Below are positions 4,065 through 53,716 of a DNA stretch of 64,000 nt, one piece after another. Source of the DNA: Roseateles sp. DAIF2. GTDB taxonomy: Bacteria; Pseudomonadota; Gammaproteobacteria; Burkholderiales; Burkholderiaceae_C. Positions within the stretch are counted from its first letter, which is position 1. Each line of letters opens with the position of its first letter. Both the position numbers and the translations under genes were made by a program. The stretch spans positions 3,658,001 to 3,722,000 of the forward strand of contig NZ_CP049919.1 of NCBI RefSeq assembly GCF_015624425.1, read 5' to 3'. The notes beneath the pieces are model-generated. The model did no database searches and was not told the DNA's origin. It saw only the letters and a list, made by a program, of their open reading frames with translations.

Positions 4065-5327
4065 ATGCATCTTTCCGAACTGAAAGCGCTTCACGTCTCC
4101 GCCCTGATCAAGATGGGCGAGGAGCTGGAGATCGACAACGTCGCCCGCCTGCGCAAGCAGGAGCTGATGTTCGCGATCATGAAAAAGCGCGCCAAGGCCG
4201 GCGAACAGGTCTTTGGTGACGGCGTGCTGGAAGTGCTGCCGGACGGCTTCGGCTTCCTGCGCTCGCCCGAAGCCAGCTACATGGCGTCGACCGACGACAT
4301 CTATCTGAGCCCGAGCCAGATCCGCCGCTTCAACCTGCACACCGGCGACATGATCGAGGGCGAGGTGCGCGTGCCCAAGGACGGCGAGCGCTATTTCGCG
4401 CTCGTGAAGGTCGACCGCGTGAACGGCCTGACGCCCGAGGAGAGCAAGCACAAGATCATGTTCGAGAACCTGACGCCCTTGTTCCCCAAGGAGCAGTTCA
4501 AGCTCGAACGCGAGATCCGCAGCGAAGAGAACATCGTCGGGCGCATCATCGACCTGATCGCGCCGATCGGCAAAGGCCAGCGCGCCCTGCTGGTTGCCCA
4601 GCCGAAGACCGGCAAGACGATGATGATGCAGCAGCTCGCGCATGCCATCACCGCCAACCATCCCGAGGCGCACCTGATCGTGCTGCTGGTGGACGAGCGT
4701 CCGGAAGAAGTGACCGAGATGCTGCGCACCGTGCGCGGCGAGGTCATCAGCTCCACCTTCGACGAGCCGGCCGCCCGCCATGTGCAGGTGGCCGAGATGG
4801 TGATCGAGCGCGCCAAGCGCCTGGTCGAGCTGAAGAAGGACGTGGTGATCCTGCTGGACTCGATCACCCGCCTGGCCCGCGCCTACAACAACGTGCTGCC
4901 CAGCTCCGGCAAGGTGCTGACCGGCGGTGTCGACGCCAATGCGCTGCAGCGCCCCAAGCGCTTCTTCGGCGCGGCGCGCAATGTCGAGGAAGGCGGCTCG
5001 CTGACCATCATCGGCACCGCGCTGATCGACACCGGCTCGCGCATGGACGAGGTGATCTACGAGGAGTTCAAGGGCACCGGCAACTGCGAAATCCATCTGG
5101 ATCGCCGCATGGCCGAGAAGCGCGTCTACCCCTCGATCCTGATCAACAAGTCCGGCACCCGCCGCGAGGAGCTGCTGCTCAAGCCCGAGATCCTGCAAAA
5201 GAGCTGGATCCTGCGCAAGCTGCTCTACAACATGGACGAGATCGAGGCGATGGAGTTCATCCTCGACAAGATGAAGGCCAGCAAGAACAACCACGACTTC
5301 TTCGACATGATGAGGCGCGGTGGGTGA
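4065..5327 (+). CDS. rho: Transcription termination factor Rho
   Basis: A 420-residue hexameric RNA-dependent ATPase and helicase that terminates transcription. It has the N-terminal HLSELK helical domain, a cold-shock RNA-binding domain with DGFGFLRS (about 60-67), Walker A PKTGKT (about 180-185), the Walker B region [16 protein letters not shown], and the secondary-site motifs that follow. The ATG at 4065 gives the standard Rho length; an in-frame TTG further upstream would add a non-conserved extension. A structured element begins one base after its TGA and is followed by a strong intrinsic hairpin. Confidence 0.98.
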
Positions 5328-5396
5328 GTCGGGACCGAGCCAGGCGCCTGCGCGCCTGGCGACGCCCGACGAACGCCGGAGCGCGTCCCGCGCGCT
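5328..5396 (+). repeat. Two-hairpin 3' UTR RNA element, copy 1 (after rho)
   Basis: Starting at the first base after the rho stop: outer stem GTCGGG (5328-5333)/CCCGAC (5365-5370), asymmetric internal loop ACCGA/GACG, inner 9-bp stem GCCAGGCGC (5339-5347)/GCGCCTGGC (5352-5360) and loop CTGC. A GAACG linker (5371-5375) and a second hairpin AGCGCG-TCCCG-CGCGCT (5380-5396) follow. The same architecture with different stem sequences follows the glcG-like gene and efp. It precedes the intrinsic terminator. Function is unknown; I call it an RNA element because the paired positions vary together. Confidence 0.7.
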
Positions 5397-5423
5397 GCGG
5401 CCGGGTTGAGACTGCAGGTCTTC

Positions 5424-26184: not shown

Positions 26185-26261
26185 ACCGCCCGAGGGTTAC
26201 CACCGGGGTTCTTTGCGCAAAAAAGAGTGAGTCGCCGGCGGCGGCTAGTCGTTGCACCCGG

Positions 26262-26334
26262 CCAGACCGCGCGGGACGCGGCCTGGCCTTCGCCGGGCGT
26301 CGGACAAGGCGCAGGCCTTGTCCTTGGTCCTGGC
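26262..26334 (-). repeat. Two-hairpin 3' UTR RNA element, copy 2 (after the glcG-like gene)
   Basis: Read on the minus strand from the first base after the stop: outer arm GCCAGG (26334-26329), ACCAA, inner arm GGACAAGGC (26323-26315), loop CTGC, GCCTTGTCC (26310-26302), GACG, outer arm CCCGGC (26297-26292; 5 of 6 pairs) and GAAGG. A second hairpin follows: CCAGGCCGCG-TCCCG-CGCGGTCTGG (26286-26262), 10 bp with one G-U. Loops CTGC and TCCCG are identical to the rho copy, but the stems differ. Confidence 0.7.
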
Positions 26335-26739
26335 TCAGCCCAAGGCCGCGATGCCGGCGCGGGCGATCTGGGCGTCTTCGCTGGACTTGACGCCGCTGAC
26401 GCCGACCGCGCCGACGCAGACGCCGTCGACCAGCACCGGCACGCCGCCTTCCAGCAGGCCGTTCAGGCCGGGCGCGCTCAGGAAGGACACGCGGCCCTGG
26501 TTGATCATGTCCTCGTAGATCTTCGACTCGCGGCGACCCAGCGCGGCGGTGTGCGCCTTGGCCGGCGCGATCTGCGCGGAGATCGGGGCGGCGCCGTCCA
26601 GGCGCTGCAGCCACAACAGATGGCCGCCGTCGTCGACGATGGCGATGCTGACGGCCCAGCCGTGGCTGGTGGCCTCGGCTTCGGCAGCGGCGGCGATGCG
26701 CTTGACGTCATCCAGGGTCAGGTAGGCTTTTTGTTTCAT
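26335..26739 (-). CDS. GlcG/HbpS-family heme-binding-like protein
   Basis: 134 residues from the ATG at 26739 (MKQKAYLTLDDVKRI). The family forms octamers of a profilin-like fold; some members bind heme or sense redox, and glcG lies in glycolate operons. Here there is no glc gene nearby and no signal peptide, so the role is open. The conserved VSIAIVDDGGHLLWLQRLDGA and GGVPVLVDGVCVGAVGVSG blocks are intact. It is divergent from the Bax inhibitor-1 gene, with a large palindrome between them, and its 3' UTR holds a structured repeat. Confidence 0.85.
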   Translation of the reverse strand: MKQKAYLTLDDVKRIAAAAEAEATSHGWAVSIAIVDDGGHLLWLQRLDGAAPISAQIAPAKAHTAALGRRESKIYEDMINQGRVSFLSAPGLNGLLEGGVPVLVDGVCVGAVGVSGVKSSEDAQIARAGIAALG

Positions 26740-53064: not shown

Positions 53065-53619
53065 ATGAAGATCGCTCAAGAAATCCGCGCCGGCAACGTG
53101 ATCATGCAGGGCAAGGACCCGATGGTCGTGCTGAAGACCGAATACAGCCGCGGCGGCCGCGGCGCGGCGACCGTGCGCATGAAGATGAAGAACCTGCTGA
53201 ACGGCGCAGGTACGGAAACCGTCTTCAAGGCCGACGACAAGATGGACCAGATCATTCTGGACAAGAAGGCCTGCACCTACACCTACTTCGCCGACCCAAT
53301 GTATGTGTTCATGGACACCGAGTACAACCAGTACGAGGTCGAGTCCGAGAACATGGGTGACGCCCTGTCCTACCTGGAAGACAGCATGCCCGTGGAAGTG
53401 ACCTTCTACGACGGCAAGGCCATCTCGGTCGAACTGCCCACCAGCGTGGTGCGCGAGATCGAAACCGAGCCGGCCGTCAAGGGCGACACCTCGGGCAAGG
53501 TCATGAAGCCCGCCCGCCTGAAGGGCACCGGCTTCGAGATCCCCGTGCCGCTGTTCGTCGAAAACGGCGACAAGATCGAAATCGATACCCGTACGCACGA
53601 GTACCGCAAGCGCGTCTGA
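53065..53619 (+). CDS. efp: Elongation factor P
   Basis: 184 residues in the usual three beta-barrel domains. The modification site is Arg32 in SRGGRGAA, the form rhamnosylated by EarP, rather than the Lys that EpmA modifies. It relieves ribosome stalling at polyproline. It follows earP, and a structured RNA element begins at the base after its stop, before the intrinsic terminator. Confidence 0.98.
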
Positions 53620-53690
53620 GTTCGGACCGAGGACAAGCCCAATGGCTTGTCCGACGCCGAACGAAGGACTGCCGCCATGCAGGGCGGCAG
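53620..53690 (+). repeat. Two-hairpin 3' UTR RNA element, copy 3 (after efp)
   Basis: From the first base after the efp stop: outer stem GTTCGG (53620-53625)/CCGAAC (53657-53662), internal loop ACCGA/GACG, inner stem GGACAAGCC (53631-53639)/GGCTTGTCC (53644-53652), loop CAAT, linker GAAGG, then a second hairpin CTGCCGCC (53669-53676)/GGCGGCAG (53683-53690). Same plan as the copies after rho and the glcG-like gene. Confidence 0.7.
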
Positions 53691-53716
53691 GCATAAGCCC
53701 TCCGGCTTGACCCACG

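What the first reader, a model, noticed from the sequence alone, without database searches (positions are those of the whole stretch)
5328..5396. Covarying two-hairpin RNA element at the first base after the stop codon in three unrelated transcripts
Copies follow rho (5328-5396), the glcG-like gene (26334-26262, minus) and efp (53620-53690). All have, in order: 6-nt outer arm, ACCRA, 9-nt inner arm, 4-nt loop, 9-nt inner arm, GACG, 6-nt outer arm, GAASG, then a second hairpin. The stem sequences are different in each copy but remain complementary, which is covariation. Offset to the stop is zero in all three, and each lies before a canonical terminator. Loop CTGC and the second-hairpin loop TCCCG are shared by copies 1 and 2. 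It looks like an undescribed structured RNA or a structured mobile repeat that has settled in 3' UTRs. I do not recognise it as an Rfam family. A role in mRNA stability, translation of the stop region or protein binding are all open.
Basis: seen in the sequence. Interest (0 to 1): 0.85.

Follow-up and report, generated by a model that had tools for sequence, protein, structure and literature searches.

The report
Mobile hairpin repeat at stop codons
In Roseateles-like bacteria a small two-hairpin repeat sits exactly at the stop codons of ordinary genes, in at least one case brought its own stop codon with it, and its hairpins stay paired even as their letters change; the RNA-family library searched holds no match for it.

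Summary
Confirmed and extended. The three window copies (after rho, a GlcG/HbpS-like gene and efp) belong to a real family of about 75 nt: TGA, P1 (6 bp), ACCRA, P2 (9 bp), 4-nt loop, GACG, P1', GAAGG, P3 (8-9 bp), GGC(A). The own genome gives 10 model matches; 50 of 299 same-family genomes, own included, have it. No Rfam family matches. Stems covary (44 sequences: 95.4% of cells paired, 285 double changes). In 13 non-overlapping pairs of copies at the same gene end in different species, 19 base pairs changed on both sides and stayed Watson-Crick, about 1 expected. Of 153 locus-heading core copies, 116 sit flush on a coding-like stop. Efp carries it only here among 31 genomes: relatives read C-TAA, this genome C-[TGA...GGCA]-TAA, so it went in between last codon and stop. 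Diverged copies in other genera lie in other repeats. Best reading: a REP-like mobile repeat landing at C^TRA and then kept as a sense-strand 3'-UTR hairpin. No mobilising enzyme was found; no molecular role is shown.

The parts
5325..5327 (+). TGA: rho stop codon and 5' head of element copy 1 (preceded by G here, not the usual C)
5328..5370 (+). copy 1 hairpin 1: P1 5328-5333/5365-5370, ACCGA 5334-5338, P2 5339-5347/5352-5360, loop CTGC 5348-5351, GACG 5361-5364
   Evidence: 71.6 bits with model R1
5371..5401 (+). copy 1 linker GAACG and hairpin 2 (P3, loop TCCCG)
26335..26337 (-). TGA: stop codon of the HbpS/GlcG-like gene and head of copy 2
26292..26334 (-). copy 2 hairpin 1 (ACCAA variant; one A.C mismatch in P1; loop CTGC)
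   Evidence: 70.6 bits with R1; 74.5 bits with R2
26260..26291 (-). copy 2 linker GAAGG and hairpin 2 (loop TCCCG)
53617..53619 (+). TGA: efp stop codon, read as supplied by copy 3
53620..53662 (+). copy 3 hairpin 1 (P1, ACCGA, P2, loop CAAT, GACG)
   Evidence: 69.5 bits with R1; 84.5 bits with R2
53663..53693 (+). copy 3 linker GAAGG, hairpin 2 (53669-53690, loop ATGCAG) and right end GGCA
53694..53696 (+). TAA, read as the displaced original efp stop codon (relatives G001 and G002 read cgcgtc TAA at the gene end)
   Evidence: inference from the comparison

Best explanation
A short REP-like mobile repeat of the Roseateles/Pelomonas/Paucibacter/Inhella group. The unit is about 75-77 nt, reads TGA-G... 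to ...GGC(A) and forms two hairpins. It inserts just 3' of a C, mostly a C that ends a gene's last codon, so the incoming TGA becomes the stop codon, the protein is unchanged and the old stop is pushed to the right end (read from the efp comparison; inferred elsewhere). Units can repeat head to tail. Once in place the sense-strand hairpins are kept paired by compensatory change. Inferred role: a stable, stop-flush 3'-UTR structure that blocks 3' exonucleases and/or slows ribosomes at the stop, as reported for E. coli REPs within 15 nt of a stop. The insertion enzyme is unknown; a single-strand (HUH/IS200-like) mechanism is a guess from the hairpins and the lack of a target duplication.
For: Structure: (95.4% of 1056 cells paired; slid versions 32-39%). 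Stop link: 116 of 153 locus-heading core copies on coding-like stops, against 453 of 6283 CTGA sites in the L052-L143 loci and window, element sites included; C before the stop in 80 of 85 against 54% of 442 ordinary stops. Insertion: efp element in 1 of 31 genomes with displaced TAA, glcG-like element in 1 of 22 genomes, read by eye; empty and filled copies of a host repeat in G118 differ by TGAG...GGC after a C (3 empty, 6 filled). TGA belongs to the unit: rho of G048 reads TAG then TGA-element. Maintenance: 23 double Watson-Crick changes against about 1.1 expected in 18 same-site comparisons; 19 against about 1 in 13 non-overlapping gene-end pairs; 86 against about 7 in all 31 same-site pairs. 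Sense strand: single-defect helices hold 25 G.U against 9 A.C, p 0.009; P1 and P2 alone 20 against 7, p 0.019. Stop-near REPs reported to stall ribosomes: PMC12306157 passages.
Against: No transposase is tied to it: 29 loci around Y1-transposase matches had no R2 match below E 0.4, though only 8 of the 29 come from genomes in which the element was found, and G015 and G023 were not searched. Recent copying is weak: 5.5% of 255 within-genome pairs against 1.5% of 5047 between-genome pairs reach 90% identity. The all-defect G.U:A.C count is 35:20, p 0.058. Double changes outnumber one-sided ones (23 against 13), which template switching inside palindromes would also give. 23 locus-heading copies have a stop triplet without a coding-like frame and 13 have none; that scan also missed the diverged copies of G118, G115 and G215 (20 fetched loci), of which most in G118 lie in another repeat. 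The window's rho copy has G before the TGA. Some loci lost the element (remnants in G001 and G002 rho). No expression data.
Confidence: 0.58

Rival explanations
1. Purely selfish single-strand DNA repeat. Its hairpins matter only for being moved (by a RAYT or other HUH enzyme); stop-flush copies survive because they leave the protein intact. Stem pairing is kept by template switching inside palindromes, not by RNA selection.
For: Lineage-specific insertion, insertion into another repeat without duplication, tandem arrays, decay by deletion, double changes more frequent than one-sided ones. Two Y1-transposase matches exist in the own genome.
Against: One-sided changes are more often G.U than mismatch (9 against 4; 5 against 3; small numbers), and G.U exceeds A.C; no enzyme is linked to it in the loci examined.
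Confidence: 0.31
2. Vertically inherited cis-regulatory RNA that does not move: a structured 3' UTR element working at the stop codon.
For: Copies at the same gene across genera, for example rho and several others, with compensatory change; constant helix lengths and invariant unpaired motifs (partly by selection of the copies).
Against: efp and glcG-like copies are unique to this genome among 31 and 22 read; copy sets differ within one genus; G118 copies sit in another repeat.
Confidence: 0.08
3. Ordinary intrinsic terminators or chance hairpins.
For: GC-rich hairpins after stop codons.
Against: No T-run: 0 of 84 copies have 4 or more T in the 8 nt after position 73; conserved unpaired motifs; covariation.
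Confidence: 0.01

Closest known systems
REP sequences (GTAG-tagged) moved by RAYTs
   Same: Short palindromic repeats, mostly downstream of genes; GTAG REPs are reported often to give the TAG stop to the flanking gene (PMC3733652, section 15); stop-near REPs are reported to reduce translation (PMC12306157 passages).
CGTC-tagged REPs (dRS3-like)
   Same: Read on the other strand, GACG plus P2 is CGTC followed by a 9-bp stem with a 4-nt loop; no linked transposase (PMC3733652 passages).
   Different: Stem does not begin with AT, tail is TYGGT not CCA, and it is one half of a larger two-hairpin unit.
PATE/IS200-IS605-derived palindromic elements (recalled)
   Same: Hairpins near the ends, insertion 3' of a short motif, no target duplication seen.
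   Different: No Y1 gene linked; target motif C^(TRA) not proven.
attC sites of integron cassettes (recalled)
   Same: Folded repeat directly after a stop codon.
   Different: No conserved R'/R'' boxes in the P1 arms (A3); the carrying genes named here are chromosomal housekeeping genes, not cassettes.

Membership tests
Rfam 15 families | Score at or above a family's gathering threshold | tested here: not met
   Window: only two tRNAs; copy 1 region at E up to 10: no match reached half its threshold; 11 loci with copies: one tRNA only
GTAG REP / RAYT system | GTAG head at the hairpin | tested here: not met
   Head is CTGA in most copies
GTAG REP / RAYT system | RAYT gene flanked by copies | tested here: not met
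   29 loci around PF01797 matches from 24 genomes (8 loci in genomes carrying the element): no R2 match below E 0.4; a stricter scan of 9 of them found none
GTAG REP / RAYT system | Mostly downstream of genes | tested here: met
   116 of 153 core copies on coding-like stops; convergent neighbours enriched, p 0.013
CGTC REP | CGTC tag, 8-9 bp stem, 4-5 nt loop | tested here: met
   Reverse complement of P2 plus GACG; GACG was part of the search pattern
CGTC REP | Stem starting AT and CCA-like tail | tested here: not met
   First P2 pair is G-C in 44 of 44; tail TYGGT (both partly set by the search pattern)
IS200/IS605-derived repeat | Insertion without target duplication 3' of a fixed short motif | tested here: inconclusive
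   efp and G118 sites fit C^ with no duplication; few clean sites
IS200/IS605-derived repeat | Moved by a Y1 (HUH) transposase | not testable with these tools
   Needs a transposition assay
Intrinsic terminator | U-run after the hairpin | tested here: not met
   0 of 84 copies
attC (definition recalled) | Conserved GTTRRRY/RYYYAAC boxes | tested here: not met
   P1 arms vary freely at their outer positions

The most novel reading that the evidence does not exclude
A mobile element specialised for stop codons: its target is C^TRA at the end of genes, it replaces the stop with its own UGA and so inserts into genes without changing the protein, and the host then keeps its two hairpins as a 3'-UTR control RNA acting on the terminating ribosome or on mRNA decay.
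Probability: 0.3. Interest if true: 0.8.

Novelty: new variant of a known kind. Interest (0 to 1): 0.6.

Why it matters
It offers a defined repeat whose insertion point coincides to the base with translation stops and whose structure is kept by compensatory change at the same gene end across species. That makes the old question of whether REP-like repeats are junk, selfish or useful directly testable gene by gene, including rho and efp, two genes central to transcription and translation.

Tried and rejected
Terminator reading: rejected, no T-run. Rfam family: none. RAYT-flanked REP: no copies near the Y1 loci examined. Phage contigs: one exact pattern gave 0 stretches in viral contigs. The first motif-only pattern in the own genome gave 17 matches against 28 for the pattern read backwards, so the pattern alone proves nothing; 8 of the 17 had a hairpin by eye. 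Stop codon as the sole definition of the site: rejected, because CTGA is kept where no gene appears to end. A G.U/A.C count of 51:30 used a scan that credits G.U pairs and was replaced by the motif-picked set. A same-site count of 41 double changes in 20 comparisons included array followers and was replaced; because its 18 comparisons share some loci and two are not at gene ends, 13 non-overlapping gene-end pairs were counted too. One search used pairs with upstream identity of 72% or more and hairpin-1 identity from 0.75 to below 1; one search also gives all 31 pairs without the second cut.

Rows dropped: L014 left out of A2 (no outer stem). Before A3, 14 loci were set aside (3 chance matches L056, L121, L133; 11 with irregular P1 or P3: L086, L093, L136, L079, L108, L143, L099, L126, L117, L138, L096); of 97 copies extracted, 71 were non-redundant, 47 of those 73 nt long, and A3 used 44 (three with a shorter P2 left out). 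So the 95.4% is for regular copies. Motif columns are conserved partly because the search pattern asked for them.

Literature: the searches listed no paper whose title or abstract start describes such an element in these bacteria; the library lacks most subscription papers. Papers seen: PMC3733652 abstract, passages and section 15; PMC2817692, PMC12306157 and PMC12320835 passages; the others search listings only. Odds changed on checking: best explanation 0.62 to 0.58, selfish rival 0.27 to 0.31 and novel case 0.33 to 0.30, because the scan missed the diverged copies and double changes outnumber one-sided ones.

Full report
What is there. The three window copies were read and folded. Each begins on the base after a TGA and has a 6-bp outer stem P1, an internal loop ACCRA/GACG, a 9-bp stem P2 with a 4-nt loop, a GAAGG-type linker and a second hairpin P3. 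A pattern written from these copies is found 3 times in the window against 0.27 expected. The upstream genes are rho, an HbpS/GlcG-like gene and efp.

The family. A covariance model of hairpin 1 built from 7 copies, leaving the stop codon out (R1), found 10 places in the own 6.01-Mb genome at E up to 1 (the tenth, E 0.0026, lacks the outer stem) and matches in 7 of 40 genomes, own included. An exact pattern scan of genome contigs gave 92 stretches with 99 matches; 3 are chance matches in unrelated phyla and 96 I take as real by inspection. By record title these are Roseateles, Pelomonas, Paucibacter, Inhella, Methylibium and unnamed Burkholderiales or Comamonadaceae, plus one contig labelled Methylotenera. 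A full two-hairpin model (R2, 44 regular copies of 73 nt) matched 50 of 299 genomes of the same family, own included, in 29 of 141 genera, at E up to 1e-5 (at most 16 candidates were scored per genome, so copy numbers are lower bounds). Rfam holds no match.

Covariation. In the 44-sequence alignment 95.4% of 1056 cells pair, 20 of 24 pairs change on both sides somewhere (shuffles 16.0, 1 of 500 as high), and 285 cells change on both sides against 81 in shuffles; structures slid by 1-3 columns pair 32-39% of cells. Because copies at different genes could be independent palindromes, I compared copies at the same site in different species, P1 and P2 only, array followers dropped. In 18 comparisons 23 pairs changed on both sides and stayed Watson-Crick where about 1.1 are expected, with 9 one-sided G.U changes, 4 mismatches and 1 other double change. 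In 13 non-overlapping gene-end pairs the figures are 19 against about 1, with 5 G.U, 3 mismatches and 1 other; in all 31 same-site pairs without an identity cut, 86 against about 7, with 12 G.U, 6 mismatches and 5 other. Among helices with one defect, in copies picked by unpaired motifs only, G.U outnumbers A.C 25 to 9, p 0.009 (P1 and P2 alone 20 to 7, p 0.019); over all defects it is 35 to 20, p 0.058. This points to pairing in the sense strand as a single strand, RNA or ssDNA, rather than a double-stranded palindrome. That double changes outnumber one-sided ones leaves room for template switching.

Link to stop codons. Of 99 pattern matches, 80 have TGA and 5 TAA directly before; the base before that is C in 80 of the 85, against C before 54% of 442 ordinary stops. 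In a wider structural scan of fetched loci, 153 of 176 copies head their locus: 116 sit on a coding-like stop, 23 on a stop triplet without coding-like frame, 13 on no stop triplet and 1 too near an edge. Coding-like is a test of open frame and codon-position GC. Among the 13, three have TGA one base off, some follow another copy and one is probably false; among the 23, some are probably real gene ends (for example rho of G048). Only 453 of 6283 CTGA sites are coding-like stops. CTGA or CTAA is kept in 21 of the 23, so the head belongs to the element or its target. The scan did not pick up the diverged copies in G118, G115 and G215 (20 fetched loci); those in G118 mostly lie in another repeat and those read in G115 in long intergenic blocks. 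So the stop link is a property of the core variant.

How it got there. Rho orthologs end in the same residues, apart from small changes, with or without the element; besides the own genome, R2 matches follow rho in 5 of the 29 fetched orthologs (G252, G128, G048, G249, G166), and by eye remnants remain in G001, G002 and G144 (one of the 29 was not read, motif not found). In G048 rho stops with TAG and the element's TGA follows directly. Efp carries the element only in the own genome among 31 read by eye; G001 and G002 read cgcgtc-TAA, while the own genome reads cgcgtc-TGA...GGCA-TAAG. The simplest reading is insertion of TGA...GGCA between the last sense base and the stop. The glcG-like copy is also unique among the 22 genomes read (23 of 24 genomes matched, 21 of them read, plus own). 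Joined gene ends compared in sister genomes show turnover: at one gene (purL by recall of its C-terminus) the element is intact in G001, a remnant in G002 and absent in G000. In G118 the unit sits inside another palindromic repeat; comparing 6 filled with 3 empty copies, the insert is TGAG...GGC after a C with no duplication. Tandem copies have spacings of about 76-91 nt. In 90 single copies at coding-like stops, 54 have a TGA or TAA directly or one base after the GGC end; this fits a displaced stop but also the start of a decayed second unit.

What it probably does. Copies are followed by convergent genes more often than other CTRA stops (42 convergent, 36 same-strand, 31 unclear; background 64, 112, 50; p 0.013), which fits transcript ends. 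They are not terminators (0 of 84 with a T-run). E. coli REPs within 15 nt of a stop are reported to stall ribosomes and lower translation (PMC12306157 passages; the primary paper, Liang, Rudd and Deutscher 2015, is recalled and was not seen). A flush hairpin would be expected to do the same and to shield the 3' end. That step is inference.

What it is not. It fails the head and RAYT tests of GTAG REPs and the stem-start and tail features of CGTC REPs, though its P2 half resembles the latter. I file it as a new variant of the REP-like kind, not as a member of either family.

Limits. No expression data, no strain-level polymorphism and no mobilising enzyme; of the 29 Y1 loci searched only 8 come from genomes in which the element was found. 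Within-genome similarity gives only a weak sign of recent copying (5.5% of 255 within-genome pairs at 90% identity or more, 1.5% of 5047 between-genome pairs). Gene names other than rho, efp, the HbpS/GlcG-like gene and the integrase-family gene of L018 are recalled from C-terminal sequence.

Noticed in passing
L213-L223 (genome G118): Another dispersed palindromic repeat (AAGGAAAC...GTTTCCTTGACCCCC...GGGGG) is a host site for near-identical copies of the element.
   Followed up: partly
L241 1340-2240, L242, L243 (genome G249): Copies lie beside a repeat reading GCGCAGCAAAGAAATGCGGGG, with CTGAG kept though no gene appears to end there.
   Followed up: no
L225 1440-2240, L226 950-1670, L228 860-1660 (genome G115): Long intergenic blocks built of nested palindromes, with diverged element-like units facing outwards about 370-450 bp apart.
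   Followed up: no
L079 1741-1840 and L108: Copies next to what looks like an inverted duplicate of a tRNA 3' end, without a stop codon before them.
   Followed up: no
L167 and L175 (own genome, C1:1297208-1297534 and C1:5017579-5017899): Two Y1-transposase (RAYT-like) matches in the own genome, with no good element match within 1.5 kb.
   Followed up: partly
L058 (contig labelled Methylotenera sp.): Element and gene end nearly identical to Roseateles puraquae L124; possibly a mis-binned contig.
   Followed up: no
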